NCBI GenBank assembly: GCA_021786915.1 | Contig: JAJYMP010000263.1 | Coordinates: 1 to 13,893 of the forward strand | Reading direction: 5' to 3' | DNA: 13,893 bases | Source: Chloroflexota bacterium | GTDB lineage: Bacteria; Chloroflexota; Limnocylindria; Limnocylindrales; CSP1-4 | Part shown: positions 1 through 13,893 of the stretch, piece after piece | How the letters are laid out: each line of letters starts with the position of its first letter | How positions within the stretch are numbered: position 1 is the stretch's first letter | Made by a program: the position numbers and the translations under genes | Notes under the pieces: model-generated | What the model saw: only the letters and a program-made list of their open reading frames with translations | Told to the model about the DNA's origin: nothing | Database searches by the model: none

Positions 1-2376
1 CCGACGCGGCTGGACGGGCCGAAGACCCGGTTCCTCCCGTTCAACCGCGGCAACGCCGGCGGCAGGGGCAACGCCCCCGACCCGTCGGGCCACCGCACCC
101 GGTATCTGTGGGAGGAGCTCTGGGCGCGGGACGCCTGGCTCGACGTCCTCGCCCGGTTCATCCACGTCATCCCGGGCGAGGGATCGACCAAGGCCGCGAA
201 GCTGCGCAACGGGACGACGATCTTCCCGCGCTACCACCAGTGGGACGCGGTCCGCCGGCTCGAGGCCGCCGCGCGCGAGGAGGGCCCCGGGCACAGCTAC
301 CTCGTCCAGCACTCCGCGGGGTCGGGCAAGAGCAACACGATCGCCTGGCTCGCCCACCGGCTGATGAGCCTCCACGGCGCCGACGACGCGCCCGTGTTCG
401 ACAAGGTCGTCGTCATCACCGACCGGGTGATCCTCGACCGCCAGCTCCAGGAGACGATCTTCCAGTTCGAGCACGCGACCGGCGTCGTCGCCCGGATCGA
501 CCAGGACTCGGGGCAGCTCGCCGACGCCCTGTCGGGCGAGCAGAGCCGGATCGTCATCACGACGCTCCAGAAGTTCCCGTTCATCCTGGACAAGGTCAAG
601 GAGCTCGGGCGCCGGCGTTTCGCGGTGATCGTCGACGAGGCGCACAGCTCCCAGACTGGCGAGGCCGCGAAAGGCCTCAAGCAGGCGCTCGGGTCAGTCT
701 CGGCCGAGGCCGCGCTCGACGCCGCGGAGGCCGCCGATGCGGCGGGCGCCCCGCCCGACCCCCAGGACGCGCTCGCGGCGACCCTCACCGCCCGCGGCCG
801 CCAGCCGAACCTGTCCTTCTTCGCCTTCACCGCGACCCCAAAGGGCCGCACGCTCGAGCTGTTCGGGCGGAAGAACGCGGACGGCAACTACGCGCCGTTC
901 CACCTGTACTCCATGCGCCAGGCCATCGAGGAGGGGTTCATCCTCGACGTGCTCGCGAACTACACGACCTACGCCACCTACTGGAAGGTCGGCAAGGCCG
1001 TCGCCGACGACCCCGAGTACGACACCCGGCGGGCCAAGCGGGCGATCGCGCGGTTTGTCTCGCTCCACCCGCACAACCTCGCCCAGAAGGCCGAGGTGAT
1101 CGTCGAGCACTTCCGCGCCCACACGCGTCGCAAGATCGGCGGCAGGGGCAAGGCGATGGTCGTGACCTCGTCGAGGCTCCACGCGGTGCGGTACAAGGAG
1201 GCGATCGACAAGTACATCGCGGAGAAGGGGTACGCGGACACGAGGGCGCTCGTCGCCTTCTCGGGCACGGTCAGCGACGAGGGCGACGACTTCACCGAGT
1301 CGGGGATGAACCGGCTGCCCGAGAGCCAGACCGCGACCGCGTTCGGCGGCCCCGAGTACGGCGTGCTGATCGTCGCCGAGAAGTTCCAGACGGGCTACGA
1401 CCAGCCGCTGCTCCACACCATGTTCGTGGACAAGGTGCTCACCGGCCTCGCGGCGGTCCAGACCCTCTCGCGGCTCAACCGGATCCACCCCGAGAAGACC
1501 GACACGTTCGTGCTCGACTTCCGCAACGACGCCGAGGCGATCACTGAGGCCTTCGAGCCCTGGTACGAGACGACCGTCGCGGTCCCGACGGACCCGAACA
1601 CCCTCCACGACATGGCCGGCCGCGTCTTCGGGCTCCAGGTCCTCGACGCGGCCGAGGCGGCGGCGATCGCCTCGCTCATCGCCGACCGCACCCACAGAGT
1701 CACCGACCACGGCGCCATCTACGCGCTCCTCGGGCCGGTTGTCGGGCGGTTCAGGGGCAGGCCGGAGCCGGAGCAGTACGAGTTCCGCGACTCCCTCGAC
1801 GCGTACCTGCGGGCGTACTCGTTCCTCGCCCAGGTCGTCGAGTTCGGCGATGTGGGCCTCGAGGCGCTGTACCTCGCCGGCCGGGCGCTCCAGGCCGACC
1901 TCCCGGCCCAGGACGGCGGAGGCCGCCTCGACCTCGGCAGCGAGGTGGAGCTGACGCACCTGCGCCTCGAGGAGACGAGCTCGGGCTCGATCACCCCGGA
2001 CCACGGGGTGGGGGAGCTCGCCGCCATCTACTCCGGCAGGGGCAGGCAGGCCGAGGAGTCGGCCGAGCACCTGTCCGCGATCATCTCCGTCCTCAACGAG
2101 CGCTTCGGCATGGCCCTCGGCACGGCCGACCAGCTCTTCTTCGAACAGATGGAGGAGACCTGGATGGCCGACCAGCAGCTCACCGACCAGGCCCGCGCCA
2201 ACCCGATCGAGAACTTCCGCCTCGTGTTCAACGACGTGTTCATCAAGAGCATCGTCGGCCGCATGGACGACAACGAGGACATCTTCCGCAAGATCCTCGA
2301 CGAGCCGGCGTTCCAGGCGGTCGTCATGGACCACTACCTGCGGCGAGTGTTCGAGCGGGCGAGAATGCTTCGATGA
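1..2376 (+). CDS. hsdR: Type I restriction enzyme motor/endonuclease subunit HsdR, 5'-truncated by the window edge
   Basis: The frame is open from base 1 to TGA at 2374-2376, giving 791 codons. HsdR proteins are usually about 1000 residues, so roughly 200-250 N-terminal residues, including the PD-(D/E)XK nuclease domain, lie upstream of the window. The visible part is the SF2 DNA translocase. It shows the HsdR hallmark FLPFNRGNAGG near residues 11-21, Walker A HSAGSGKS at 104-111, the DEAH box at 212-215 (VDEAHSSQTG), motif III FTATP at 276-280, TGYDQP near 464-469, and motif VI QTLSRLNR near 487-494. The rest is the helical C-terminus that docks on HsdM. HsdR cuts unmodified DNA after ATP-driven translocation, in complex with HsdM and HsdS, which are not in this window. 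Third codon positions are nearly all G/C except in the last ~11 codons. The stop overlaps the next start as ATGA. Family assignment is secure. Confidence 0.96.
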   Translation, partial: PTRLDGPKTRFLPFNRGNAGGRGNAPDPSGHRTRYLWEELWARDAWLDVLARFIHVIPGEGSTKAAKLRNGTTIFPRYHQWDAVRRLEAAAREEGPGHSYLVQHSAGSGKSNTIAWLAHRLMSLHGADDAPVFDKVVVITDRVILDRQLQETIFQFEHATGVVARIDQDSGQLADALSGEQSRIVITTLQKFPFILDKVKELGRRRFAVIVDEAHSSQTGEAAKGLKQALGSVSAEAALDAAEAADAAGAPPDPQDALAATLTARGRQPNLSFFAFTATPKGRTLELFGRKNADGNYAPFHLYSMRQAIEEGFILDVLANYTTYATYWKVGKAVADDPEYDTRRAKRAIARFVSLHPHNLAQKAEVIVEHFRAHTRRKIGGRGKAMVVTSSRLHAVRYKEAIDKYIAEKGYADTRALVAFSGTVSDEGDDFTESGMNRLPESQTATAFGGPEYGVLIVAEKFQTGYDQPLLHTMFVDKVLTGLAAVQTLSRLNRIHPEKTDTFVLDFRNDAEAITEAFEPWYETTVAVPTDPNTLHDMAGRVFGLQVLDAAEAAAIASLIADRTHRVTDHGAIYALLGPVVGRFRGRPEPEQYEFRDSLDAYLRAYSFLAQVVEFGDVGLEALYLAGRALQADLPAQDGGGRLDLGSEVELTHLRLEETSSGSITPDHGVGELAAIYSGRGRQAEESAEHLSAIISVLNERFGMALGTADQLFFEQMEETWMADQQLTDQARANPIENFRLVFNDVFIKSIVGRMDDNEDIFRKILDEPAFQAVVMDHYLRRVFERARMLR

Positions 2377-2972
2377 CGATGTCGTTGGGCACCATCGGCG
2401 GTCCGAGCCGATACGTCAGCCTCCCCATGGTGAGCCAACTGCGCGTCCTCATCAGTTGTGGCGCAGACATGCGGAGGTATCGCGACCTAGCCGTTGATGC
2501 AATCGAGGCCCTCGACCATCTCCTGATGTTTGATCTTGCCGCTGGTTGCACCCTCAATTAGTGGGACTTCCGTCGTGATCTGGCCCGCGAGGAGCCGGTC
2601 GGGCACATCCCGGACAGAAGCCTCGACGCTGTGAGGGAATCTCATGCCGTGATCGCGATCCTGGGATCGTCCGTGCCCGAGATCACCGAGAGAGAGATCC
2701 GCCACGTATTTGACCTTCGAGCAATCGGCCAGGATCGGGAGCTGATGGTGTTCAGGTACCGGCCGCCGCGAGCGCGGATTGCGACTTCTCGGTCTGGTCG
2801 GCCAAGCCCCGACGACTTGATCGTGGCGGTTCGGAATGACTACAGCACAGACATCATCTACCGGTCTTTCACGAGTGCGATGGGGTTCCAGTCGGCGGTG
2901 ATGATCCACCTGTTCAAGTTCATTGCGACCTCCCTCACCCCGGCGTTCGGGCCGCTCGGTGGAGGCAGATGA
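2373..2972 (+). pseudogene. TIR/DUF4062-like small protein gene interrupted by an in-frame amber codon
   Basis: One frame runs from ATG 2373 (overlapping the hsdR stop as ATGA) to TGA 2970-2972, 200 codons, broken only by TAG at 2559-2561 (codon 63). Codons on both sides make one continuous fold. An N-terminal beta strand, LRVLISCGADMRRYRD (residues 23-38), leads into a helix, AVDAIEAL. After the stop comes WDFRRDLAREEP, then SLDAVRESHAVIAILGS (83-99) and EITEREIRHVF (103-113), a pattern resembling the Rossmann-like DUF4062/TIR families. I see this similarity by eye only; a catalytic NADase role is not shown. Residues ~131-199 are an unassigned tail. I see no Shine-Dalgarno sequence before the possible restart GTG 2631, so the halves are probably not two separate genes. 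It could be a nonsense mutant, a readthrough gene or a sequencing error. About 18 of the first 62 codons end in A/T, unlike hsdR. Confidence 0.7.
2961..2965 (+). promoter_or_regulatory. Strong ribosome binding site GGAGG for the helical-repeat gene
   Basis: GGAGG lies 3 nt before ATG 2969 and 6 nt before the adjacent ATG 2972. The spacing favours 2972 as the true start, which changes the protein by one residue only. It allows independent initiation even though the upstream gene stops early at 2561. Confidence 0.6.
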
Positions 2973-5284
2973 TGCTTGACTGGATCGCGCTCTTCATCGA
3001 CCCATCGGATGAACTTGCCCGGCCGGACGTTGATCCACGCATCGCGGCTATCGCGCACCTGCTTCTTGGGCAGATCGATCTATACCAAAGGGGAGCCGAG
3101 CAGGTCGGGCTGCCCCTCGTTGGACGGGAAGTCCCGCCAGGGCGGACCGCCGAAGACGGGCTCATCCATGGCATCACCGGCCTGATCTTGGGCGACGCGA
3201 CGGCTCCGGCCACCCTGTGCGCGGTGGTGGACGATGTCGAGGCGACAAGCGATGTCCGGACAGTGGCCGCGGTCTTGGCGTCAATCGGACTGAGCAGCGC
3301 GGCCCGACCGGAGCTCGGCATCCGAGTCCTTGTATCGGCGGAAACGGTCTCGGAGTCGCCCATCGAGCGGCGCCTTCTCCAAGTACATAGATCGGTTCGT
3401 CTGGCCGAATGTGGCCAGTACGCGGCCGCTCTTGAGGCGAGCAGCCTTCCTGGAGGCGATATCGGTCCCCTCGGTGGGCTGCTCTCGGCCGTTGCGACCC
3501 GCAATCGGTGGCACTTCTCCTGGCTCGCGGGGCTCGGAGCCTCCTCGGTTCCCGTACCTCGGCTGACGGGCTTCCCGGCGTTCGGATGGCTGACGAGGCA
3601 TGTCGCTGCTGGCCTCGAAGCACTGCTGAATTCGGACTTCGAGAGCTACTTCCAGAATCCCTACACCCGGACCCTTCGCTTTGGTGCTCAAGATCAAAGC
3701 GAGCGACTGCTCGGGTCAGCACTGTTCAGAGCCGAGTGCCTTGCGGACTGGTCACAGGTCCAGGCGATGCGGGTTGTGGTCGGCCGGAGCCGCCTGTTGC
3801 GGGAAATCGGGAAACCCGTCAATGAGATCGAAGGCGCCCTGTGGCTGCTCGTCCGAGGGCGCGATCCAGGCGGCATTGAACTTGCCGCCCGCACCTTGTT
3901 GGCGTCCGGCCCAATCACGCCGCTGCGCCTGGCTGGTCGAACCGCTGCCGTTGCTCCGTGGCGACCGCATGAGATCAAGTCCGCGATGAAGCTGATTCGC
4001 TATGCGGCTTCCACCTTCGATCCGGAACTGGCGGACAGTACGATCGATCGACTCGTGAGGCTGACGCCAGCGGTCCGAGATCGTCAGGCTGGCGATCTCG
4101 TAACACATGAGGTGCTTGACGCGGTGGCGGCCCTTCTGCCGTACGCGACCATCGATGCGGCGAGAGTCGTCGCTCGGGCGGCACTCGTGATTGCCCAGGA
4201 ACCGCCCGATGCATTGACGCACCAAGCACTCCCGGCCGTTCTGATATCGCTTCCGTGGCGGCAACTGCCTCGCGACATTCGCGGTGCCTGGCTGAGATAC
4301 CTGAGCAGCGAGCTGTCGGCCACAACCCACCACGTCTTCGTCGCATACGCGGCCGCAGCGGCGCTCGCACACGCCGGATCGCGCCTGATCTGGCGGTCTG
4401 TGGAAGCATCGTACCGAGACCATCGAGCCCCCCTCGCGGTTGGCCTCTTGGCGGCTCGTTCGCGCTTGCCGGTCGACATCCGCACAGCCATCGAGGCGGA
4501 CGCTGTCGAACGCGCCACGCAGTTGCGCGAAAGAGCCTCCAAGGGCGATCTACAGATGGGTGCGCCGTCGATCGGAGGACTTCTTGGACGGATGGCACGA
4601 GGGCTGAAGCCATCCGTATTGCGCGCCGCAGTCGAATTCGCGCTCGATCCGAACGTGGCTCAGGATGAGAGGATCGCCGCTGCATCCGAACTTATTCACG
4701 TCCTGCATCGCACCCCTCGATGGGTCAGACGAGCCCTACAGGTAGGTCTGGAGCCGTCCCGGGTGGAGATCGTGGTGTTTGGTACTCCGGTCGCCCTCCG
4801 TGCGTTCAATCTCGAGCTCCGGGCCCGATTGTCGGCGATCTCCAGAGAGGACGCGACAGGCGAGTTCTTGGATCTGGCCCACAGCAGTTCGCTCGACGGC
4901 CGGATCGGGGCTGTGAATTCCGGGCCCACCTTGCGAGAAGTCGTCGGCGGGCCAATCGTCGAGTCGACGACGCTCGGACTCTCGTGGGATGCTTCCCCTA
5001 CGGTTCGCGCGCGGGCTGGCGCGCAACTCGTCCATATGACAATCGAAACGCCTGGGCTCGCCGGAGCCGCTCGACACCGCATCGGGGAAATGCTCTCGGA
5101 GCCGGGAGAGGAGGTGCCCCGTGCCTGCTGGGCGGCACTGTCAGACTCCACGGATTCGGCCTCTGCCGTCTTCACCCACCATGCGGAAAACACGGTGGCC
5201 AACCACGAGTCCTACGCGGTGCGCAGGGTGGCTGCACAATTCCTCGCGGTAGCTCGCGGACAGGGCGGGCGGGGACGCGGGTGA
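2969..5284 (+). CDS. Uncharacterised ~770-residue helical protein with C-terminal HEAT-like repeats
   Basis: The start overlaps the stop of the TIR-like gene (ATGA 2969-2972), and its own stop overlaps the next ORF (GTGA 5281-5284), so it sits in the hsdR operon. The protein is 771 residues, or 770 from the better-spaced ATG 2972. It reads as almost entirely alpha-helical and soluble, with no signal peptide, clear membrane span, P-loop or nuclease motif that I can find. C-terminal segments follow the HEAT pattern of an acidic turn, VR, then a small-residue helix: DASPTVRARAGAQL near 674-687, PGEEVPRACWAAL near 712-724, and HESYAVRRVAAQFL near 746-759. The tail ends in GQGGRGRG. More degenerate helical pairs occupy roughly residues 330-600. 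I do not recognise the family. A scaffold or sensor for the adjacent TIR-like protein is plausible from coupling alone. Codon use is less G/C-biased than hsdR. Confidence 0.85.
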   Translation: MMLDWIALFIDPSDELARPDVDPRIAAIAHLLLGQIDLYQRGAEQVGLPLVGREVPPGRTAEDGLIHGITGLILGDATAPATLCAVVDDVEATSDVRTVAAVLASIGLSSAARPELGIRVLVSAETVSESPIERRLLQVHRSVRLAECGQYAAALEASSLPGGDIGPLGGLLSAVATRNRWHFSWLAGLGASSVPVPRLTGFPAFGWLTRHVAAGLEALLNSDFESYFQNPYTRTLRFGAQDQSERLLGSALFRAECLADWSQVQAMRVVVGRSRLLREIGKPVNEIEGALWLLVRGRDPGGIELAARTLLASGPITPLRLAGRTAAVAPWRPHEIKSAMKLIRYAASTFDPELADSTIDRLVRLTPAVRDRQAGDLVTHEVLDAVAALLPYATIDAARVVARAALVIAQEPPDALTHQALPAVLISLPWRQLPRDIRGAWLRYLSSELSATTHHVFVAYAAAAALAHAGSRLIWRSVEASYRDHRAPLAVGLLAARSRLPVDIRTAIEADAVERATQLRERASKGDLQMGAPSIGGLLGRMARGLKPSVLRAAVEFALDPNVAQDERIAAASELIHVLHRTPRWVRRALQVGLEPSRVEIVVFGTPVALRAFNLELRARLSAISREDATGEFLDLAHSSSLDGRIGAVNSGPTLREVVGGPIVESTTLGLSWDASPTVRARAGAQLVHMTIETPGLAGAARHRIGEMLSEPGEEVPRACWAALSDSTDSASAVFTHHAENTVANHESYAVRRVAAQFLAVARGQGGRGRG

Positions 5285-5430
5285 CCGAGGTGAATGGTCT
5301 GAATAGCGGCGACGCCATGACTGACCAGGCTGCCTTCGACGAAATGATCATGCGCAACGAAGCGCGCCAACGGGAGCCAATCGCGGCCATGCGCGTGGAG
5401 TTGTCACCACTCGAACCGGCGGCGTCCTGA
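5281..5430 (+). CDS. Tentative small ORF, 49 codons, end of the hsdR-linked cassette
   Basis: GTG at 5281 overlaps the preceding stop (GTGA), repeating the coupling seen at the other gene joints of this operon. The frame ends at TGA 5428-5430, inside the loop of a hairpin. The product is 49 residues, acidic and helical in the middle (AAFDEMIMRNEARQREPIAA), with a Pro/Ala-rich end. An internal ATG at 5317 would give 37 residues. It has no recognisable family, signal peptide or membrane span. The evidence is position and coupling only, so it may be a chance ORF. Confidence 0.35.
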   Translation: MTEVNGLNSGDAMTDQAAFDEMIMRNEARQREPIAAMRVELSPLEPAAS

Positions 5431-5537: not shown

Positions 5538-6287
5538 TCACGTTCGGGCGGACGTGAAGGCGGCGGTCATGTTGGCGAGCACCTGCTCGCGCGCCTCGTC
5601 GATGGTGACCTCCCAAGCGCCTGCCAAGCGGTGCACGGTCGCGACGATGTCCGACGGCGCGTTCGCGCGGCCGGCGTGTCGGCCGTATGGCGCGTCGGTC
5701 TCGGTCAGGACGCGCTCCCTTGGCACCCGGGCAAGCAGTTGCCCTGCCTTCGACCCCGCCAGCATCGACTCGTTGATCGAGAAGTAGCATCCCGCCGCCA
5801 CAGCCCGGTCGACGAGCGCCACTGCACCCGTGAACCAGTGTAGGACCGGAGTCAGGCGGATGGTCGGCCGCTCCAGTCTGGCGATGACGTCCTCGTCAGC
5901 CCGTCGGCTGTGGAAGCTCCATACCTTCCCGCCCAGCCGGGCGTCCGCGAGAATCTCGTCTAGGACCGCCTGCTGTCGCGCCTTGCTCGAGGCGCCATCA
6001 CGGGAGTAGTCGAGTCCGACCTCGCCGATGTAGTCCGCTCCCTCCGCCGCACGCAGGAATGCCGCGACGTCCCGGGCGGAGAGTCGCCCGGCGAGCAGCG
6101 GGTGCAGTCCGACGGCCAGCCGGACGTTCTTGGCCGTCGCGAAGCGGCCCTTCGCGGCCTGGAACTCCTCGGCGTGGTTGGTGACTCCGACGATGACGAC
6201 TCCGGAATCCAGGGCCCGGCGAATGGCGGAGGGCGGGTCGGCCAGATCCATGACGTGGCAGTGTGCGTCGACGAGTGCCGTCATCAT
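5538..6287 (-). CDS. qatD: QatD, TatD-like metal-dependent DNase of the QatABCD anti-phage system
   Basis: This 249-residue protein carries the full metal-binding set of the TatD amidohydrolase-fold nucleases: DAHCH (His9, His11), GEVGLDYS (Glu89), SFHSRRA (His126), LHWFTG (His150) and TETDAPYG (Asp198). The length is normal for TatD. The ATG at 6287-6285 overlaps the qatC stop (ATGA), and a second ATG follows directly, so the start could be one codon later. On its own it would be called a housekeeping TatD DNase. Its place as the last gene after a KAP ATPase, QatB and a QueC-like protein identifies it as QatD, presumably a nuclease effector or processing subunit. Its biochemical role in defence is not settled. 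Divalent-metal-dependent 3'-5' exonuclease activity is inferred from the family. Confidence 0.92.
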   Translation of the reverse strand: MMTALVDAHCHVMDLADPPSAIRRALDSGVVIVGVTNHAEEFQAAKGRFATAKNVRLAVGLHPLLAGRLSARDVAAFLRAAEGADYIGEVGLDYSRDGASSKARQQAVLDEILADARLGGKVWSFHSRRADEDVIARLERPTIRLTPVLHWFTGAVALVDRAVAAGCYFSINESMLAGSKAGQLLARVPRERVLTETDAPYGRHAGRANAPSDIVATVHRLAGAWEVTIDEAREQVLANMTAAFTSART

Positions 6288-7621
6288 GCGAACCTGGCCT
6301 GCAATGCGCGGTCCGTCGCACCGGACAGGAACACCCCGACCTCGGCCATGCCGCGAGCGTGAACGTCGGCGAAGGCTGTCGCCTCTCCGGAGGGCAGCGA
6401 GCCGTTGCGCAGGACAGCGACCGACGACGGCCGGGCCGCGAGCGCCCGGACGAGCGCTCGGAGGGTGTCGGCACGCGTGCCTTCGTCATTCACGAACGCC
6501 GACGCCGTCAACACGTCAAGTTCGTAGTCTCCAGCCGTGTCGAGGCCGACCCGCGCGAGGGACGCACGCCGGATTAGGCACGGATAGCACCACCCGCACG
6601 AGCGGTTCCGCGTGCGGGCGGGGTGGGCGCACGAGATAGACCGGCGGGCGACCGCATCGAGCAGCACCCGGTTGGCGCACTGCTCTGCGGCCTCGCCCTT
6701 CGTCATGAGGCGGAATGGGTTCTCGACGCGATTCGCGATGCCCAGGGCCTGTCGCAGTTGGGCGATGAGCGCCATGAAGTGGGGATGTGTTGTGCGCGTG
6801 CTGGCCGAGCCTGACCGCGACGCGATCAGCGGGACGTTGATCCCGATCAGGCCGTTCTCGGGCATGTGGAGCGGCACCTCAGGCCCAACTGCAGCCGCCA
6901 GCGCTAGGCCCCACGCGATGAACAGGAGCGAGCGGGCGCGGGTGGTGTTCTCCGCGGCGGCGGGGAGCGGCCGCTCCTGTGCAGGGGCTGGCCGCCGGAC
7001 CTGAACGCTCATCCTGGCGAGCGCGACGCGTTCGCCGTAGACGTCGTGGAGACGTCCGAACAACTCAGTCTGGCGGGCGACGCTCGTTCGCGAGTCGCGG
7101 ACTGCGGCGAGCAGCACGCACCGGTCGGGGGACCGCTCGAGCAGGTCGATCGCGCCGATGAGCGAGTCGAGCCCCCCGGAGAAGAGGCAGACCACGTCGG
7201 CCTCGACGGGGCGGACTTCGAGGCCCCGCGGCCGCCGGCGCGAGGCGCGCAGCTCCCAGTGGTCGCCGGAGACGAACGACAGGGCGCGCTCGGCGATCGG
7301 CTCGGCCGCGGACCAGTCGATGGCTCGCGGATGCTCCAACGTGAGGTCGCGCGTCCAACGGTCCGCCGTCGCGACACGAGATGCCACCTTGTCGGTGATG
7401 AACGAGCCCACCGCAAGCCACAGCAGGTCGACCGCCGGTGCGGGGATCGCCGACCAGCGGCGATGCGCCAAGCGCCTGTGGCCCCGCCGGGATGGCTCGT
7501 CCTCCAGCGTGAACGCGATGGATGCGGTGTTCGCGGACTCCTCCTCGAACACGTCGATGTAGTTGACGCCTCGAGCGCGGCGTGTGGCGACCGGGCGGGT
7601 CCGGAGCAGGAACGCGGTCAC
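6284..7621 (-). CDS. qatC: QatC, QueC-like PP-loop protein of the QatABCD anti-phage system
   Basis: The protein is 445 residues from GTG 7621, which overlaps the qatB stop as GTGA. The open frame runs further upstream to 7759, but that part is antisense-like Arg/Pro-rich sequence inside qatB, so I reject the longer start. The PP-loop is CLFSGGLDS (SGGLDS at 148-153), the ATP-pyrophosphatase signature of QueC (7-cyano-7-deazaguanine synthase). A putative zinc site is formed by Cys331, Cys342, Cys345 and Cys348 (SCGWCYPC). A conserved-looking MPENGLIGINVPL stands at 253-265. It is longer than QueC (~220-240 residues) because of an N-terminal extension of ~140 residues, typical of the defence paralogue. 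No other queuosine genes are nearby, so a role in deazaguanine synthesis is unlikely. The likely chemistry is nucleotide or protein modification. Confidence 0.92.
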   Translation of the reverse strand: MTAFLLRTRPVATRRARGVNYIDVFEEESANTASIAFTLEDEPSRRGHRRLAHRRWSAIPAPAVDLLWLAVGSFITDKVASRVATADRWTRDLTLEHPRAIDWSAAEPIAERALSFVSGDHWELRASRRRPRGLEVRPVEADVVCLFSGGLDSLIGAIDLLERSPDRCVLLAAVRDSRTSVARQTELFGRLHDVYGERVALARMSVQVRRPAPAQERPLPAAAENTTRARSLLFIAWGLALAAAVGPEVPLHMPENGLIGINVPLIASRSGSASTRTTHPHFMALIAQLRQALGIANRVENPFRLMTKGEAAEQCANRVLLDAVARRSISCAHPARTRNRSCGWCYPCLIRRASLARVGLDTAGDYELDVLTASAFVNDEGTRADTLRALVRALAARPSSVAVLRNGSLPSGEATAFADVHARGMAEVGVFLSGATDRALQARFA

Positions 7622-8322
7622 TCCAGGTCCTCCATGAGCCCGAACGCCTCTTGCACCATCTCGCGCAGGCGATCGGCGCCTGCCTGCGTCGTCCACGGGA
7701 ATGCCAGGACGTCGACATCGTCGAGGCGCAGCCGGACCAGGGCGCGGGTGCGATCCCACGCCTCGTCCACGATCGCCTGCTGCTCGGTGGTCGACCCGAC
7801 CTTGGCGATCCGCGGCTCGAGGTCACGCAGGAGCAGGGTGAACACAAACCGTGCGAAGAACGTGCCGAGGATCTCCTCGACCTGGCCTGCCGACAGCGTC
7901 TGGTCGAGGATCTGGTCGGCGGTGAGCGCCTCCGGAAACGCCTCGTCGAATGTGAACAGCAGGGCATCGCGGATGGCCTGCTCGTCGAGGGTGCTGCCGT
8001 CGCCGGCCAGCTCGTCGGCGAGCCCGGACAGCATGTCCTCGCGGCCGAGCCCGACAAGGTCGGCGAGTCCGAGGTCCTCGAACACGGCCCGAAGGGGAGC
8101 CGCCCCGGCAGCACTCGCGAGGCCGGCGGTCCGCTGGGCCGAGGCCACCCATTGCCGCGATGCCTCGGCGCCGCCCGCCGCGCCGCCCAGAGCCTCGACG
8201 AACCGCTCGAACATGCGACGGGCAGGCTCGTCACCCCGGTCGCGGACGAAGGTCGTGGCCGAGCGCCGGTAGTTGGTCCACGGTCGACCACTCGGCCCCT
8301 TGATGTCCTTCGACGTCCCCAC
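7618..8322 (-). CDS. qatB: QatB, subunit of the QatABCD anti-phage system
   Basis: The product is 234 residues from GTG 8322-8320. The start is supported by AAGGGAG four bases upstream and by the N-terminal MGTSKDIKGPSGRPW, a Gly/Ser-rich start seen in QatB proteins, followed by SATTFVRD. The rest appears helical, with an acidic middle (residues ~100-150) and no catalytic motif that I can identify. The gap from the qatA stop is 27 nt, and its own stop overlaps the qatC start (GTGA), so A-B-C-D are one transcript. QatB has no assigned enzymatic function. Its identity here rests on gene order, length and the N-terminal pattern rather than on a diagnostic active site. Confidence 0.85.
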   Translation of the reverse strand: MGTSKDIKGPSGRPWTNYRRSATTFVRDRGDEPARRMFERFVEALGGAAGGAEASRQWVASAQRTAGLASAAGAAPLRAVFEDLGLADLVGLGREDMLSGLADELAGDGSTLDEQAIRDALLFTFDEAFPEALTADQILDQTLSAGQVEEILGTFFARFVFTLLLRDLEPRIAKVGSTTEQQAIVDEAWDRTRALVRLRLDDVDVLAFPWTTQAGADRLREMVQEAFGLMEDLE

Positions 8323-8326
8323 TGGT

Positions 8327-8333
8327 CTCCCTT
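8327..8333 (-). promoter_or_regulatory. Ribosome binding site AAGGGAG that fixes the GTG start of qatB
   Basis: On the minus strand AAGGGAG is followed by four bases and then GTG at 8322. It lies in the 27-nt gap after the qatA stop, so qatB can initiate on its own, unlike qatC and qatD, which rely on overlapping stop/start codons. Confidence 0.55.
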
Positions 8334-8349
8334 CTGCGAGCGGCGTGAC

Positions 8350-10146
8350 CTACTTGAGGGCAGCCTTGGCTGCCTTGGCGACAGGCGCATCCGAGGCTGC
8401 CCAGCCCCCGAGCAGATTCGCGAGATCCTGGGGCATGGGCTTGAACTGGACCCCGAAGCCGAGCACGAGCGCCGGCGGCATGTTCGCCGGTGGGATGCGC
8501 GCGAGGCGCTGCGCGAACTCCGGCACGAGCGTCGGGTCAATCCCGGCCATCTCAGCGGCACTCTTCATGGCGGCGCCGCGGGGAGCGCTCTCGGCACGTT
8601 CCATCAGGCGGTCGAAGACGACCGTCTTCTCCTCCGCCACGAGGGTTGCGAACTCGGCGATCGCGGCCTTCCTCGTCCGTTCGACCTCGTCGCCGAGGCG
8701 CGCGAGGAGCTGCTGCATCGCCGGCCCGAGCCTCGCCTCAGACATGCTCTGGACGAGGCGCTCTCGCGAGAAGTAGAAGTATGGCCCAAGGTCCTCCTTG
8801 GCCAGCGGGGGATCCAGCCGGACCCACTCGGCGAGTCGCTCCGTGCCGAGCCACCTGGTCGCCTCGTCGGTGACCTCGCCTTCTCCGCCGGCGGCTGCCT
8901 GCTCGATGGCTGCCAGGGGCGCGGCCATCCCCTTGCCCTCGGCCTGCCACCTGAACAGGGTCTCGAATGCCACCAAGTCGACCTGCTCGAGGACGCCCAT
9001 CTTGGCGAGCACCGCAACGTCGAGCGGCACGCCGCGGCGCTGCGCCGCGTGATGCCGGAGCATGACCGTGTTGAGGAAGCGCTTGATCTGGCGGGGGTTG
9101 CCGCGCAGCCGCCGCGAGAGGGGCGGCGAGATCTGCCGCGCGATCGCAAGGGACCGCGCGAGGTCACCTGGCAACGTGCCGCCCAGTGCCTCGGTCGCGA
9201 TCCCCTCGTTCATCGCGATGGCCAGGTACGCGCTCTCGCGCTGCTTCCTGGCCGCCTCGCGGAGGGCGTCGATCTCCGCGTCCGCCAGGTTGGAGACCTC
9301 GGCGAGCAGCAGGTTGATGTAGGTCTGGGCGTCGTTCGTCGAGAGCGGCGGCACGACGATCCTGGTCTGGATGAGCTTCTCGAAGTAGTCCCCACCGAGC
9401 GTTGGGTAATCGCGGCTCACGGACGGGAACCGCCGCGTGATCGCGTCTCGCACGATGCGCTCGTCGGCGGCCACCACGTAGGCCGTCTTCTTGACGTGCA
9501 GGAACAGCCGGATGGCCTCGAAGGTCTCGATGATCGTCGGGGGCAGGCAGCGGTCGAGGTCGTCGATGAAGACGACGAGGCGATCCACGTCCTCGAGCCC
9601 TTCGAGCAGAGTCTCGAAGTCGGCCCGGAACTCCGCGACCGACGCATAGGCCGGCTCTCTGGCGGCCTCGCTCGCCTCGGCATCACCCTTGCTCTTCAGA
9701 TAGCCGAGACCTATGAAGGCCGTAGGGTCGATCGGGATTCCGGCGTGCGCTGCGATCCCCGCACGGGCGACGGCGCCGGCCACCGTGAACCAGTTGACTC
9801 GGCCCACGAGCTTCGCGAGCAGCGCCCGAGACCTCTCCTGGACCGTCGTATCCGCCTCGACCGCGGGGTCCAGGGCCGTCATGACCGCCTGCATGAGCGC
9901 GGTCTTGACGTCCTCGAACCCCTCGAACTGCCAGGGGCTGAACTCGACGACCACGGACCGCTTCGCCTCGTCGGCGCGCAGCATCTTGGCGGTCATCTTG
10001 AGGAGGCTGCTCTTGCCGGATCCCCAGTCGCCGCTTACACCGACGGTGATTGGCAGGAGCCGCGGCTCGCACAGGACCGTGATCAGCTCGTCGGCGAGGT
10101 AGTCGAACCCGAGCAGGTCGATGTCGGTCTCGTTGTCAGCCCACAT
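8350..10146 (-). CDS. qatA: QatA, KAP-family P-loop ATPase of the QatABCD anti-phage system
   Basis: This 598-residue protein is a KAP-type NTPase. It shows Walker A GDWGSGKSS at 39-47, the KAP signature VVVEFSPWQFEG at 65-76, and Walker B VVFIDDLDRC at 191-200, followed by PPTIIETFEAIRLFL and the sensor-like strand AYVVAADERIV. A weakly hydrophobic insert sits near residues 118-150, where KAP ATPases often carry membrane hairpins; here it is broken by Pro and charged residues, so membrane insertion is uncertain. The C-terminal ~200 residues are helical. The start ATG 10146-10144 has GGAGG five bases upstream. As first gene of the operon it likely supplies ATP-driven sensing or switching for the nuclease and QueC-like subunits. 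That role is inferred from STAND/KAP biology. The stop TAG is followed by a 27-nt gap before qatB. Confidence 0.93.
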   Translation of the reverse strand: MWADNETDIDLLGFDYLADELITVLCEPRLLPITVGVSGDWGSGKSSLLKMTAKMLRADEAKRSVVVEFSPWQFEGFEDVKTALMQAVMTALDPAVEADTTVQERSRALLAKLVGRVNWFTVAGAVARAGIAAHAGIPIDPTAFIGLGYLKSKGDAEASEAAREPAYASVAEFRADFETLLEGLEDVDRLVVFIDDLDRCLPPTIIETFEAIRLFLHVKKTAYVVAADERIVRDAITRRFPSVSRDYPTLGGDYFEKLIQTRIVVPPLSTNDAQTYINLLLAEVSNLADAEIDALREAARKQRESAYLAIAMNEGIATEALGGTLPGDLARSLAIARQISPPLSRRLRGNPRQIKRFLNTVMLRHHAAQRRGVPLDVAVLAKMGVLEQVDLVAFETLFRWQAEGKGMAAPLAAIEQAAAGGEGEVTDEATRWLGTERLAEWVRLDPPLAKEDLGPYFYFSRERLVQSMSEARLGPAMQQLLARLGDEVERTRKAAIAEFATLVAEEKTVVFDRLMERAESAPRGAAMKSAAEMAGIDPTLVPEFAQRLARIPPANMPPALVLGFGVQFKPMPQDLANLLGGWAASDAPVAKAAKAALK

Positions 10147-10569: not shown

Positions 10570-10875
10570 ATGCAGAACGTGATTGGCATCCGGACTCTTC
10601 GGCGGGGCGTCAACGGGGCGCTCCTGCGCGTGGCGCGCGGCGAGACGATCGTCCTCGTGCGGCACGGGCGGCCGGTCGCGATCCTCCGGCCCCTCGGCGA
10701 GGGCGAGCTGTACCGGCGGGTGTCGGTGACAACCTTCCGGCGGAACCTGCGGCGGGCCGTGCTGGTGTCGCACCGCCGCCCGATCACGCTCACCTGGTAC
10801 GGCGACGGGGCCGCGGTGCTGGCGCCCGTCCCGCCCGAGCTCGAGCTCGAGTACGAGGAGGACGAGCTCCTGTGA
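10570..10875 (+). CDS. Double Phd/YefM-like antitoxin-fold protein, 101 residues
   Basis: The ATG at 10570 is the first start giving a sensible protein; the same frame is open far upstream only because it is antisense to qat genes. Two Phd-like units are seen. Residues 5-44 (IGIRTLRRGVNGALLRVARG, then IVLVRHGRPVAILRPLGE) match the usual helix, 'GE.i.i.r.GrPvAvL' turn and strand. Residues 51-87 (VSVTTFRRNLRRAVL, then ITLTWYGDGAAVLAPVP) are a more diverged copy. The tail is strongly acidic (ELELEYEEDELL). Single Phd/YefM antitoxins are ~80-90 residues with one such domain and a toxin-binding tail. No toxin gene follows; the next gene is another double-Phd protein, with a GTGA overlap. The most likely role is a DNA-binding regulator of the transfer operon. 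No clear Shine-Dalgarno sequence is visible. Confidence 0.75.
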   Translation: MQNVIGIRTLRRGVNGALLRVARGETIVLVRHGRPVAILRPLGEGELYRRVSVTTFRRNLRRAVLVSHRRPITLTWYGDGAAVLAPVPPELELEYEEDELL

Positions 10876-11474
10876 CCGCCGGCGGGATGATCCAGGCGCT
10901 CGGGATGCGCGAGGTCCGCGAGAGGATGCGCGCGGTCGTGGCGCGGGTCGAGGCGGGCGAGGCCCTCGTGGTGCTCCGCGACGGGCAGCCGGCCGCGGTG
11001 ATGCTCGGCTTCGCCGAGGGGCAGCGCTGGCAGCAGGTCGAGCGGTCGCTGTCCTCGCTCCACGGCCTCGAGCTGTACCCGGAGCTGGCGCGCGACACGG
11101 CCGAGCTGGCGCGGCTGGTTCGGCGCGAGACAAGGCCGTCGGCCAGCGCGATCCGCCATCTGGCCGAGCAGCCTCGCGACATCCTGGCGCCGCTGCGGAC
11201 TATGGGGATCACCGACGCCCGGGCCGGGTTCGCGACGCTGCTCGACGAGGTCGGGCGGGGGCGGACGATGACGATCGTGTCGAGCGGCCGGTTCGCGGCC
11301 ACGCTCGTCGCGCCGCGCGAGTTCGACCGCCTCCGCGCGCTCGACCGCACGGTGGGCTGGTTCCGGTCCGCGGGGCTCGACCTCGCGGCCGCGGACGATG
11401 CCGCGATCGCCGCCTTCGTCCGCGACTTCGCGGCGCGGTCGGCGGCGGCCGGTGCCGAGCAGGCGGCGGGGTAG
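10872..11474 (+). CDS. Second Phd/YefM-like protein with two antitoxin-type domains, 200 residues
   Basis: GTG 10872 overlaps the previous stop (GTGA); an internal ATG at codon 6 is an alternative. The first Phd-like unit is residues 6-50 (MIQALGMREVRERMRAVVAR, then ALVVLRDGQPAAVMLGF). The second is 111-158 (MGITDARAGFATLLDEVGRG, then MTIVSSGRFAATLVAPREFDRL), which is closer to the canonical YefM pattern, including the trailing FDRL helix. About 60 residues of charged helix join them, and a further helical tail reaches residue 200. With its partner this makes four antitoxin-type domains in two coupled genes and no RelE/Doc/VapC-type toxin. ATG of the pilin gene follows two bases after the stop, tying it to the secretion genes. 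Regulatory function is inferred, not shown. Confidence 0.75.
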   Translation: MTAGGMIQALGMREVRERMRAVVARVEAGEALVVLRDGQPAAVMLGFAEGQRWQQVERSLSSLHGLELYPELARDTAELARLVRRETRPSASAIRHLAEQPRDILAPLRTMGITDARAGFATLLDEVGRGRTMTIVSSGRFAATLVAPREFDRLRALDRTVGWFRSAGLDLAAADDAAIAAFVRDFAARSAAAGAEQAAG

Positions 11475-11476
11475 CG

Positions 11477-11872
11477 ATGGGCGCGAGCGGGGGGACGAGG
11501 CGGGTCCGGCGCAGCCGCACGGCGCTGGTGCTGGCGGCCCTCGCGCTCCTGTGGCTGGCGGGCGCCTCGCCGAGCCTCGCGTCGGGCACCGTGCCGGCCG
11601 GGGCGAAGGAGGCGCTGGCGCCCGTCACCAAGATGATCGCGACGCTGGTGGCGATCGCGATCGGCCTGGGCGTGGCGGTCTGCGGCGCGGTGATCGTGTG
11701 GGGCGGCATCGAGAAGACGCTCGCGGGCGCGAACCAGGACGCCGAGCACCGCGCCACGCGGCGGATCCAGAACGGGATCCAGGGCCTGGTCTGGATGATC
11801 CTCGCGAGCGTGATCGTGTCCACGATCACCGCCATCGCCGTGGCCTACGGCCTCATCGACACGCCCTTCTAG
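11477..11872 (+). CDS. VirB2/TrbC-like pilin of a type IV secretion system
   Basis: This 131-residue membrane protein has the layout of VirB2/TrbC pilins. A basic N-terminus (RRVRRSR) and hydrophobic signal segment (ALVLAALALLWLAGASPSLAS) have a plausible cleavage after about residue 35. A hydrophobic span follows at ~52-76 (MIATLVAIAIGLGVAVCGAV, then IVWGGI). A charged loop (KTLAGANQDAEHRATRRIQN) leads to a second span at ~103-126. The loop's RIQNGIQG segment is reminiscent of TrbC-like proteins. It follows the double-Phd gene by two bases and precedes a VirB6-like gene by 11 nt. The processed subunit would sit in the membrane and form the extracellular conduit. Family assignment is by topology and context rather than a diagnostic motif. 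Confidence 0.75.
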   Translation: MGASGGTRRVRRSRTALVLAALALLWLAGASPSLASGTVPAGAKEALAPVTKMIATLVAIAIGLGVAVCGAVIVWGGIEKTLAGANQDAEHRATRRIQNGIQGLVWMILASVIVSTITAIAVAYGLIDTPF

Positions 11873-11883
11873 GCCGGACCGCG

Positions 11884-13026
11884 ATGCAGACGACCCGGGG
11901 CCTGGTCCCCCCTGCCCTCCGGACCCTCCGTCCCCTCCCGGCCCGGCCGCGGGCCCCCCGCGGCGTGCCGCCCGCCGCCCTGGCAATGCTCGCCCTCGCG
12001 GCCATCGGGCTGCTGCTCGCCGGGGTGGGACGGCCGGCCGCGGAGCAGCCCGAGACGACGGCCGCGGTTCCGACACCAAGCCTGGCGGTGTCAGCCGTCG
12101 GCGCGATCCCGGTCATCGGCGACCCGGTCCGCGACCTCACGGTCTGGTACTCGGACCGCGTGGCGGACGCCGACCGGGCTGCGCTCGACAACCTGCGCGG
12201 CCAGCTCCTCACGCCGGTCGACCCGCTGGCCGACGGCGTGACCCGGACGCTGTACGGCCCGATGGTGCTCGTCACCCTGCCGCTTCTCACCTTCGGCGGC
12301 CTGATCCTCGGCTTCCTGATCATGACCAGCCGGACGAGCGGGGAGGGCGCGTACGCCGTCCGCTCGACCACCCCGCGGTACGTCGCCGCCGCCGTCCTCG
12401 CGATCCTCGGGATCTTCCTCGCCTCGGTGCTCGCGCAGTTCACCGCGGCGCTCGACGGCGCGATGATCGGCGTGTCGCTCCCGGCTGGGTCGGTCGGCGG
12501 CCCGGCGGCGTGGCCGTCGGGCGGCGGCGTGTTCACCGTCCTCGCGCAGGGCGGCTTCGACCCGTCCCTCGGGCAGGGCCCGGACAACTGGAACGACGGC
12601 GCCTGGCTGTCGTCGGGCCTGCTCGGCGGGATCCTGCTCACCGCGCTCGGGATGGCGGCCTGGGTCATCGGCATGCTCGAGCGCCTGCTGGTGATCGTCG
12701 GGCCCCTGTGCCTCGCCGCCTACGCGATGCCGGCGACGGCGCGGGTGACGTCGGTCTGGCTGCGCGCGCTCCTGGCGGTGCTCGCGGTGCGCTTCGCGTG
12801 GACGGTGACCTTCGTCCTGTTCAGTCTCGTGGCGCTGCCGCACGTCGGCCCGTCCGGGGCCCCGCCCACCGTGGCGGACACGAACGTCCTGCTGGGGCTC
12901 GCCGCGGGAGCCGCGGCGATGATGCTCGGGCTGCCGCTCGTGCTGGGCCCGGTGGCCATGGCCGGGCCGCAGTCGCTCGAGCTCCGCGAGCTGGCCTCGA
13001 CGCTCGCCCTGCTGCGGTACGCCTGA
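11884..13026 (+). CDS. VirB6/TrbL-like multi-spanning membrane protein of a type IV secretion system
   Basis: The product is 380 residues from ATG 11884, 11 nt after the pilin stop; the frame is open further upstream, but that part is antisense/shadow sequence over the pilin gene. Hydrophobic spans fall at about residues 31-49, 126-147, 166-187, 244-263, 268-285, 292-317 and 335-359. A ~75-residue polar segment (residues ~50-125) follows the first span, and a Gly/Pro/Trp-rich loop (~195-243) separates the third and fourth. This is the usual plan of VirB6/TrbL inner-membrane channel proteins, whose sequences are poorly conserved. It is followed by the PrgI-like gene after two bases, all in one operon. 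No enzymatic motif is seen. Other polytopic transfer proteins of Gram-positive elements are possible, so the name is provisional. Confidence 0.7.
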   Translation: MQTTRGLVPPALRTLRPLPARPRAPRGVPPAALAMLALAAIGLLLAGVGRPAAEQPETTAAVPTPSLAVSAVGAIPVIGDPVRDLTVWYSDRVADADRAALDNLRGQLLTPVDPLADGVTRTLYGPMVLVTLPLLTFGGLILGFLIMTSRTSGEGAYAVRSTTPRYVAAAVLAILGIFLASVLAQFTAALDGAMIGVSLPAGSVGGPAAWPSGGGVFTVLAQGGFDPSLGQGPDNWNDGAWLSSGLLGGILLTALGMAAWVIGMLERLLVIVGPLCLAAYAMPATARVTSVWLRALLAVLAVRFAWTVTFVLFSLVALPHVGPSGAPPTVADTNVLLGLAAGAAAMMLGLPLVLGPVAMAGPQSLELRELASTLALLRYA

Positions 13027-13028
13027 CG

Positions 13029-13893
13029 GTGGGCCGCCTCGTCGACGTCCCGGAGAACGCGGTCCGCGAGGAGCCGCTCGCGTTCGGGCTCACCGTCGCG
13101 CAGCTCCTCGTGTGCGGCGCCGCGGTCGCGGTCGGCGCCCTCCTCGACCTGCTCCCGCTCTGGCTGCCGATTCGCGTTGTGCTGATCCTCGTGGCCGCGG
13201 GGCCGGTGCTGGTGGCCGCGATCCTCCCGGTCCGCGGCGAGCCCGCGTACCGCTGGGCCGTCCGCGCCCTCCGGTACTGGCGCAGCCCGCGCGTGCTGCA
13301 GGTGAGCGGGGCGGAAGCCGCAGGTAAGGGGGAGATAAGTGGGGTTCGCCACGATGCGCAGGTCGATGACGCGCCGGGAGGGGTCGTGGACAGCTGGGCA
13401 GACGGGAAGGCCACAGGGGACCCGGTCCCCGCGCGGGAGCCGGGCCAGGCCGGGCCGGCGCCGGCACCCGCTGCGCTCGCGCGCCTGCGGGTCGTCGAGC
13501 CCGAGGCGGACGGGGCCGCGACGCCTGCGGGCGACCCGACCGTGGTGGCCGCACCCGAGCGCCCGCACCCCGCCCCGCACGCCCTGCCCACGATGCGCGT
13601 GGTCGCGGTCGCTGGCTTCGCGGGCGGGACCGGGCGGACGACGCTCGCGGCCGAGGTCGCGACGCTCGTGGCGGCGTCCGCGAGGATCCGCGTCCCCGAC
13701 GGCTCGGAGCGGGCGGTCCGCGTCCTGCTCCTGGACGCCGCGCGGCTCGCGAGCGCCGCGGGCCTGCGCCTGGGGCTGCCCCCGGCCGCCATCGCCGCCT
13801 CCCGCAACCACCGCCTCTGGCGCGACCCCTCCGCGGTCGCCGAGGCCGCGGCCCGGACGCCCTGGGGCGCGGACGTGCTCACCCTGCCGCCGC
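13029..13893 (+). CDS. PrgI-like membrane domain fused to a ParA/MinD-like ATPase domain, 3'-truncated by the window edge
   Basis: The frame is open from GTG 13029 to the window end (288 codons) with no stop. Residues 1-90 fit PrgI-family transfer proteins: VDVPENAVREEPLAFGLTVAQ, two membrane spans at about 22-40 and 47-67, then a cytoplasmic stretch PAYRWAVRALRYWRSPRVL. A Pro/Ala-rich linker runs ~91-187. From 188 a P-loop fold begins: MRVVAVAGFAGGTGRTTLA (GGTGRTT at 199-205), then VRVLLLDAARLASAAGLRLGL, which matches the ParA/MinD strand after the P-loop. The lysine of GK[ST] is replaced by Arg, and the upstream 'signature' lysine of KGGxGK is Ala. PrgI proteins of conjugative elements are normally stand-alone and ~100-130 residues, so the fusion is unusual. 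It lies two bases after the VirB6-like gene. Nucleotide hydrolysis is doubtful with this P-loop. Confidence 0.75.
   Translation, partial: MGRLVDVPENAVREEPLAFGLTVAQLLVCGAAVAVGALLDLLPLWLPIRVVLILVAAGPVLVAAILPVRGEPAYRWAVRALRYWRSPRVLQVSGAEAAGKGEISGVRHDAQVDDAPGGVVDSWADGKATGDPVPAREPGQAGPAPAPAALARLRVVEPEADGAATPAGDPTVVAAPERPHPAPHALPTMRVVAVAGFAGGTGRTTLAAEVATLVAASARIRVPDGSERAVRVLLLDAARLASAAGLRLGLPPAAIAASRNHRLWRDPSAVAEAAARTPWGADVLTLPP

What the first reader, a model, noticed from the sequence alone, without database searches (positions are those of the whole stretch)
2373..5430. Undescribed cassette translationally coupled to hsdR: TIR/DUF4062-like protein plus large HEAT-like protein
Directly behind hsdR, three frames are joined by ATGA, ATGA and GTGA overlaps. 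The first resembles TIR/DUF4062 signalling or effector folds. The second is a ~770-residue helical protein with HEAT-like ends and no enzyme motif. Small TIR-like effectors paired with a large sensor/scaffold are a recurring abortive-infection design, and placement inside a restriction operon suggests a back-up that acts when restriction is inhibited, as known for the anticodon nuclease PrrC. I do not recognise this pair as a named system. Function is inference.
Basis: partly seen in the sequence, partly recalled or inferred. Interest (0 to 1): 0.72.

Follow-up and report, generated by a model that had tools for sequence, protein, structure and literature searches.

The report
Helical defence scaffold with exchangeable killers
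Behind a bacterial restriction gene sits a damaged copy of a probably unrecognised anti-virus module: a large helical scaffold protein that, in related bacteria, is paired with or fused to different cell-damaging enzymes (a TIR-like enzyme, a DNA-cutting domain or a lipase-like enzyme).

Summary
The three frames and their ATGA/ATGA/GTGA joints are real, but frame 1 is broken by an in-frame TAG at 2559-2561, so this copy's effector is probably dead. The 771-aa protein has no Pfam, NCBIfam or PADLOC match and one near-identical public protein. Genome searches (1,760 genome searches, repeats counted) found remote relatives in 9 genomes, 8 of them full-length, plus 8 plasmid records. They show a helical, C-terminally HEAT-like core with an effector-like part just upstream or fused N-terminally: a TIR/DUF4062-like protein (window and two genomes with intact pairs), a DUF4365 PD-(D/E)XK nuclease (two genomes; plasmids of Streptomyces, Rhodococcus, Glutamicibacter), an alpha/beta-hydrolase, or putative membrane proteins. 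Several neighbourhoods hold restriction, Cas1, toxin-antitoxin, integrase or relaxase genes. The tie to hsdR is not conserved: none of 80 hsdR relatives (63 with 3 kb or more behind hsdR) carries the cassette. I read it as an unnamed abortive-infection-type family: helical sensor plus exchangeable effector. NAD+ cleavage and the trigger are inferred; the TIR assignment rests on one profile match (P 3.6e-6; 0 of 200 shuffles as good), not on a structure.

The parts
1..2376 (+). hsdR, type I restriction subunit R (5' end outside the window)
   Evidence: PADLOC REase_I 2.5e-29; SWI2_SNF2, ResIII, T1R_D3-like; closest relatives 79-81% identical in four Chloroflexi MAGs. A neighbour, not a conserved part of the module.
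2373..2972 (+). TIR/DUF4062-like effector gene, broken: 62 codons, in-frame TAG at 2559-2561, then 136 codons in the same frame
   Evidence: both pieces match the intact L101 gene separately; profile match to DUF4062
2559..2561 (+). in-frame TAG that breaks the effector gene, inside a conserved block
2969..5284 (+). 771-aa alpha-helical repeat protein (core of the family; HEAT-like C-terminal part), open frame intact
   Evidence: relatives; HEAT repeats in relatives
5281..5430 (+). 49-codon frame overlapping by GTGA; no relatives found, status unsure
5538..6287 (-). qatD (TatD-like nuclease), separate convergent system
   Evidence: PADLOC QatD 4.5e-56
6284..7759 (-). qatC (QueC-like); longest frame, true start probably further in
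   Evidence: PADLOC QatC 2.4e-88 over residues 109-483
7618..8322 (-). qatB
   Evidence: PADLOC QatB 3.3e-8
8350..10146 (-). qatA (KAP P-loop ATPase)
   Evidence: PADLOC QatA 4.4e-102; KAP_NTPase

Best explanation
The 771-aa protein is the core of an unnamed defence-type family: a helical, HEAT-like solenoid that most likely senses an infection signal (probably by binding a phage component) and switches on an effector encoded immediately upstream or fused to its N-terminus. In this branch the effector is a small TIR/DUF4062-like protein, probably an NAD+-consuming enzyme with a conserved T-x-x-E glutamate, so activation would deplete NAD+ and stop the infected cell. In sister branches the same core carries a DUF4365 PD-(D/E)XK nuclease, an alpha/beta-hydrolase or putative membrane proteins. 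Shown here: the pair, its recurrence, homology of the cores, the variety of parts in the effector place, mobile/defence surroundings in most annotated loci, and that this copy's effector gene is broken. Inferred: TIR fold, NADase activity, sensing, abortive infection.
For: Core homology: full-length profile matches; pairwise E down to 6e-116 (window to L101) and chains of significant links that join all 13 cores compared, though many single pairs show none; in a tree of the 13, each of the three effector labels with more than one member falls on one side of a branch. Pair recurrence: intact TIR-like gene in L091 and L101; TIR-like profile in 2 of 177 genomes, both beside the core. TIR/DUF4062 link: hhalign probability 87.4, P 3.6e-6, 132 columns; reversed rows 0.4; best of 200 column shuffles scores 24.4 against 42.2; T and E of T-x-x-E invariant in 3 of 3. 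DUF4062 is reported as a TIR-like NADase family in phage defence (PMC13174449, a preprint: abstract, passages and two sections read). Effector variety: DUF4365 at the N-terminus of L104, L119, L136, L137, L138 (Pfam E 5e-23 to 7e-17); a QxK motif in 6 of 6 fusions, matching the Q and K named as potential active-site residues of a DUF4365 nuclease in PMC10810196 (passages read); PADLOC Argonaute-associated REase match in 3 of 3 tested; abhydrolase in front of L135. Setting: type I M and R plus Cas1 (L091), integrase and Gp49/HTH pair (L101), HipA and PIN (L103), PDC-S39 (L104), integrase and TrwC relaxase (L119); AbiE pair (L138), MobF relaxase (L139).
Against: No function was measured. No Pfam TIR/DUF4062 hit even at E 10 for the window gene and L081, or E 5 for L101; a direct search with a nine-row DUF4062 HMM scores the window's piece only at E 4.3 among 13,975 ORFs; no TIR chain in the PDB by profile. 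Without the window row the profile match falls to probability 39.8 (P 3e-4), and single L101 and L081 give 2.2 and 12.7; only 1 of 9 pairwise comparisons of L101 stands out (z 3.0). Both AlphaFold2 models were useless (mean pLDDT 43 and 33). The core has no recognised sensor domain. The effector variety is read from 13 cores plus L102, and the tree shows effector types as single groups, not repeated switching. In L103 no effector was identified; in L102 only the C-terminal third of the core is present. L105, L134 and L135 were only partly annotated and show no clear known defence gene. This window's own copy cannot make the whole effector.
Confidence: 0.62

Rival explanations
1. Restriction back-up: the pair belongs to the hsd operon and acts only when restriction is blocked, as the anticodon nuclease PrrC does (recalled).
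For: ATGA coupling to hsdR in the window; type I M and R genes also lie in the L091 island.
Against: 0 of 80 hsdR relatives carry it, 63 of them with 3 kb or more behind hsdR; L101 sits behind an integrase; 4-nt overlaps behind hsdR with other cargo in 3 of 80 loci; the cassette differs in third-position GC from hsdR.
Confidence: 0.08
2. Two-step signalling: the TIR-like protein makes a nucleotide messenger that the helical protein reads (Thoeris-like), rather than draining NAD+.
For: TIR enzymes can do either (introduction passage of PMC13174449); separate genes.
Against: The core has no ligand-binding or effector domain match; sister cores carry a nuclease or a hydrolase in the same place, which fits an effector at the end of the line.
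Confidence: 0.14
3. Toxin and neutraliser: the small upstream protein is a toxin and the helical protein its antidote, serving element maintenance rather than phage defence.
For: Two overlapping genes; mobile settings.
Against: Antidotes of about 770 aa are unusual (recalled); in six cores the DUF4365 part is fused to the core, which suits one regulated machine. The two readings overlap, since many defence systems are toxic when released.
Confidence: 0.12
4. Not a defence module: a cellular protein complex of another kind that drifts with mobile elements.
For: No direct functional evidence; several neighbourhoods unannotated.
Against: Rare and patchy (0 of 150 genomes of the phylum of a Duganella genome; 2 of 148 of the class of a Streptomyces genome); domains of known defence types in the effector place.
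Confidence: 0.1

Closest known systems
Swarozyc (DUF4062 TIR-like NADase; PMC13174449, preprint, abstract, passages and two sections read)
   Same: TIR/DUF4062-like domain with a conserved glutamate; defence-island settings; a second part needed for defence
   Different: Swarozyc is one protein with a C-terminal auxiliary domain that binds the phage portal; here the TIR-like protein is small, scores below Pfam DUF4062, and the large part is a separate HEAT-like protein
DSR2 (SIR2 NADase with HEAT-repeat region; PMC11263360, passages read)
   Same: NAD-consuming effector steered by a large helical region with HEAT repeats that binds a phage tail tube protein: the best model of how this could work
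   Different: SIR2 not TIR; one polypeptide; no sequence link to the core seen (no DSR2 among the 56 PDB matches of the core profile)
Short Argonaute systems with TIR or DUF4365 effectors (PMC10810196 passages; PMC12205087 and PMC10474274 search listing only)
   Same: The same two effector kinds, TIR and DUF4365 nuclease, alternate on one sensing core
   Different: Sensing there is by Argonaute plus APAZ; none was seen among the proteins scanned here, and the core is a helical repeat protein
PADLOC HEAT_CxxC_PDDEXK
   Same: HEAT repeats with a PD-(D/E)XK nuclease, by its name
   Different: Only a weak match over the HEAT repeats of L101 (E 5e-5)
PrrC (anticodon nuclease in an hsd operon; recalled)
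   Same: Gene placed in a type I restriction operon
   Different: No shared domain seen in the scans, and the hsd link is not conserved here

Membership tests
DUF4062 / Swarozyc | Pfam DUF4062 above its curated cut-off | tested here: not met
   0 families at E up to 10 for the window gene and L081; 0 for L101 at E up to 5
DUF4062 / Swarozyc | Homology to the DUF4062 domain at profile level | tested here: inconclusive
   hhalign probability 87.4, P 3.6e-6, 0 of 200 shuffles as high, but 39.8 without the window row
DUF4062 / Swarozyc | Conserved catalytic glutamate | tested here: inconclusive
   T-x-x-E invariant in 3 of 3 and aligned by hhalign to a T-x-x-E of the DUF4062 rows; that this is the residue equivalent to E97 of KpSwz was not checked on a structure
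DUF4062 / Swarozyc | Auxiliary phage-binding domain in the same polypeptide | tested here: not met
   The gene ends after the TIR-like domain; the large protein is separate and HEAT-like
DUF4062 / Swarozyc | NADase activity triggered by phage | not testable with these tools
   needs assay
DSR2 | SIR2 domain fused to helical HEAT region | tested here: not met
   no SIR2 match in the 12 of 13 cores scanned against Pfam (L139 not scanned)
SPARTA/SPARDA | Short Argonaute and APAZ | tested here: not met
   No Piwi/APAZ match among the window and neighbour proteins scanned; not every ORF of every locus was scanned
SPARTA/SPARDA | DUF4365 nuclease domain (sister branch only) | tested here: met
   DUF4365 above cut-off in 5 of 5 fusions scanned; QxK in 6 of 6
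hsd-operon back-up (PrrC-like) | Conserved placement in the hsd operon | tested here: not met
   0 of 80 hsdR relatives, 63 with 3 kb or more behind hsdR; L091 and L101 differ
HEAT-repeat proteins | HEAT repeats above Pfam cut-off | tested here: met
   HEAT_2 31.3 bits over 27.7 and HEAT 26.2 over 23.5 in L101 only; below cut-off in L081, L103, L104, L136-L138; none listed for the window protein, L105, L119, L134, L135

The most novel reading that the evidence does not exclude
A new defence family built on one helical (HEAT-like) sensor core that takes different effectors in the same place - TIR-like NADase, DUF4365 DNase, lipase-like hydrolase, membrane proteins - in one branch through a shared ~130-aa adaptor domain (free in L105, fused behind the hydrolase in L135), spread on plasmids and other mobile elements of Chloroflexi and Actinobacteria.
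Probability: 0.6. Interest if true: 0.68.

Novelty: new variant of a known kind. Interest (0 to 1): 0.58.

Why it matters
If right, it adds a sensing core that no library used here recognises, and it offers a natural experiment: the same core beside an NAD-type enzyme, a nuclease, a hydrolase or membrane proteins. That would make it possible to ask what a helical defence scaffold detects and how it hands the signal to unrelated effectors. It also gives DUF4062-like proteins a two-gene form, next to the one-gene Swarozyc.

Tried and rejected
Protein search of 5.8 billion sequences with the core found one near-identical protein (2 of 770 residues differ); repeated with a 6-row alignment it found the same one; in both only the 7,996 candidates sharing most words were scored, so remote relatives may have been missed. 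The broken effector gene, stop read as X, found none. Exact-peptide scans found no relative: the window core in genome and viral contigs, the TIR-like alignment and the L135 core in viral contigs. Plasmid tblastn with the window core, L101 core, L101 TIR-like, L134, L103 and L105 cores found none; L135 found one weak hit, to the S. canus fusion. Megablast of the whole window against plasmids found one record, 272 bases inside hsdR. AlphaFold2 without an alignment gave models too poor to search, so no fold search was run. Dropped as chance or short-repeat matches: the other 13 genomes (E 0.007 to 0.35), L095/L107, L099/L106, L108, L109, L110; the short second match in G638 (L118) was not counted. 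L065, L002 and L010, picked by gene size behind hsdR, looked like other proteins by eye. Idea rejected: L105's and L134's small partners as TIR-like (hhalign 0.1-0.3 against the three TIR-like and 0.1-0.2 against DUF4062). Idea rejected: L134's partner shares the L105/L135 domain.
Full report
WHAT IS THERE. The window opens inside hsdR (1-2376), whose stop overlaps frame 1 by ATGA; frame 1 (2373-2972) overlaps the 771-aa frame (2969-5284) by ATGA, which overlaps a 49-codon frame (5281-5430) by GTGA. Frame 1 carries an in-frame TAG at 2559-2561. The cassette's third-position GC (0.70-0.76) lies below hsdR (0.97) and below the Qat genes scored (0.82-0.90). Downstream and convergent lies a Qat system, QatD-QatC-QatB-QatA; further right are a Phd/YefM-type gene and a PrgI-like match below Pfam's cut-off, so the region may be cargo of a conjugative element (inference). 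The host is unknown; the four nearest hsdR proteins (79-81%) are in Chloroflexi MAGs.

THE LARGE PROTEIN IS AN ORPHAN BY ORDINARY SEARCH. No Pfam or NCBIfam match at E 10, no PADLOC match; among 5.8 billion proteins only a near-identical one from a 3.5-kb contig (2 of 770 residues differ). Whole-genome searches with the core went further: 0 of 6 handles; 14 of 400 genomes of the phylum of G001 (a Chloroflexi locus), of which one is a full-length match (E 1.7e-43, 28% identity) and 13 weak ones were dropped. With a two-row and then larger alignments: 4 of 151 relatives of G324, one dropped; 4 of 396 genomes of the phylum of G006 (a Solirubrobacterales locus), one dropped; 2 of 9 handles with weak short matches, dropped; 3 of 201, 2 of 149 and 3 of 150 relatives of G431, G676 and G638; 0 of 150 of the phylum of G893 (a Duganella locus); 2 of 148 of the class of G896 (a Streptomyces locus). 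That is 1,760 genome searches, repeats counted. Counted once, 9 genomes hold a member: G324, G431, G426 (only the C-terminal third, behind a PHP/ATPase-like part), G638, G616, G676, G660, G1206, G1154. tblastn with the L119 protein found 10 plasmid records: 5 covered over 80% (Streptomyces 2, Glutamicibacter 1, Rhodococcus 2), 3 Rhodococcus records at 74% with an IS3 transposase annotated inside the match, and 2 Rhizobium records with the DUF4365 part only.

ONE FAMILY. In an all-against-all comparison of 13 cores (L102 left out; phmmer in a set of 13 sequences) every core is linked to at least one other at E 3e-26 or better, and further links of E between about 4e-23 and 2e-7 join the branches, while many single pairs between branches show none. 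Eight positions are identical in 13 of 13 (G314, P315, P583, R645, V679, R680, G713, R752 of the window protein); W5 and P12 near the N-terminus are kept in 12 and 11 of 13. The C-terminal third matches HEAT_2 and HEAT above cut-off in L101, and the family profile matches artificial HEAT-like repeats and PP2A-A in the PDB (E down to 1.1e-21); the N-terminal half shows only weak TPR/PPR-like matches.

THE EFFECTOR PLACE. In L091 an intact 178-aa gene overlaps the core by 4 nt; in L101 an intact 202-aa gene ends 2 nt before it. They are 27% and 46% identical to the window's frame 1. A profile of the three, run over 177 genomes of the class of G431, found just these two. In L104, L119, L136, L137 and L138 the core is fused behind DUF4365 and L139 is annotated so; QxK is kept in 6 of 6; the Argonaute-associated REase model of PADLOC matches 3 of 3 tested. 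DUF4365 linked to a short Argonaute is an unspecific DNase when activated (PMC10810196, passages). In L135 an alpha/beta-hydrolase frame overlaps the core frame, taking the longest frames. In L105 a 190-aa gene overlaps the core by 4 nt, behind a 212-aa gene with three hydrophobic segments; in L134 a 287-aa gene with an N-terminal hydrophobic segment overlaps by 4 nt. The 190-aa L105 protein aligns over residues 7-142 with residues 278-410 of the L135 hydrolase protein (phmmer E 7.9e-7 for that one comparison; hhalign probability only 34, P 4e-4; Smith-Waterman z 8.4, 0 of 500 shuffles): a shared domain next to the core, perhaps an adaptor. L103 has no clear upstream partner; a metallo-beta-lactamase-fold gene is divergent. 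So in 12 of the 13 cores an effector-like or membrane-type part lies directly upstream or N-terminal; two loci also have a candidate downstream (a DUF4062 gene in L104, a Schlafen/AlbA_2 gene in L134).

TREE. Cores with DUF4365 group together (100/100), those with TIR-like partners too (93/92, so not firm), and L105, L134, L135 form a third group (99/97). The five labels need 4 changes, the least possible, so the effector types look old; repeated switching is not shown. End branches are long (median 0.96).

IS FRAME 1 TIR-LIKE? Profile-profile comparison with nine DUF4062 domains fetched from relatives of G616 (7 of 61 genomes; nine matches, all nine used): probability 87.4, P 3.6e-6, 132 columns, T-x-x-E on T-x-x-E; reversed rows 0.4; the best of 200 column shuffles scored 24.4 against 42.2; unrelated targets QatD and the hydrolase 0.6 and 0.1. 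Against: no Pfam hit; a nine-row DUF4062 HMM gives the window's piece only E 4.3 among 13,975 ORFs; 39.8 without the window row, and 2.2 and 12.7 for L101 and L081 alone; 1 of 9 pairwise tests stands out; no PDB TIR by profile. I call it probable, not shown.

SETTINGS. L091: type I methylase and restriction subunit and Cas1. L101: tyrosine recombinase, Gp49/HTH pair. L103: HipA, PIN. L104: PDC-S39. L119: integrase, TrwC relaxase, PDC-M28C-like ATPase. L138: AbiEi/AbiEii beside it; L139: MobF relaxase, AbiEii, transposases; L136-L139 are linear plasmids. L105, L134 and L135: no clear known defence gene among what was annotated.

HSDR. Of 80 hsdR relatives none carries the cassette (no family-profile match among their ORFs); 63 hold at least 3 kb behind hsdR, and what follows hsdR differs in size and strand from locus to locus. 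The restriction back-up idea is therefore not supported.

MECHANISM. By analogy with DSR2, whose helical region with HEAT repeats binds a phage tail tube protein that triggers its NADase (PMC11263360, passages), and with the short Argonautes, where TIR and DUF4365 effectors alternate on one core, I read the core as sensor or activator and the upstream part as effector. In this window the effector gene is broken, so the copy is probably inactive. Known-system check: PADLOC finds no named system for the cores or TIR-like partners scanned beyond weak HEAT-repeat matches and the DUF4365 part, and seven paper searches listed no paper that I recognised as describing this family; only the held library was searched, and the preprint's supplement on DUF4062 operons was not seen.

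Noticed in passing
5538-10146 (-): QatA-QatB-QatC-QatD defence system, convergent to the cassette; the QatB match is weak (E 3.3e-8).
   Followed up: partly
10571-13893 (+): Phd/YefM-type gene (10872-11474) and, further right, a PrgI-like match below cut-off: possibly conjugation-element genes.
   Followed up: no
L105:2162-2734 and L135:8137-9423 (residues 278-410): A shared ~130-aa domain, free in one locus and fused behind an alpha/beta-hydrolase in the other, both directly upstream of the core: possible effector-core adaptor.
   Followed up: partly
L104:11503-12666 (+): A true DUF4062 gene directly downstream of a DUF4365-core fusion; that genome has a second DUF4062 gene elsewhere.
   Followed up: partly
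L102:4136-6715 (-): C-terminal third of the core behind a PHP/AAA-ATPase-like N-terminus (PHP by eye): natural fusion or recombination product.
   Followed up: no
NZ_CP050125.1, NZ_CP063236.1, NZ_CP092102.1 (Rhodococcus plasmids): DUF4365-core genes with an annotated IS3 transposase inside the match, apparently interrupted copies.
   Followed up: no
L138:3873-5036 (+): 387-aa protein without a family match placed directly before the DUF4365-core gene in Glutamicibacter pGnC15; AbiE pair behind it.
   Followed up: partly
L103:7191-8552 (-): Metallo-beta-lactamase-fold gene divergent from the core, weakly like LmuA of Lamassu (E 1.1e-5).
   Followed up: partly
L134:12158-13342 (+): Schlafen/AlbA_2 protein directly downstream of the core.
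   Followed up: no
G638:C144:15934-16080: A second short core-like match near the same contig's end.
   Followed up: no
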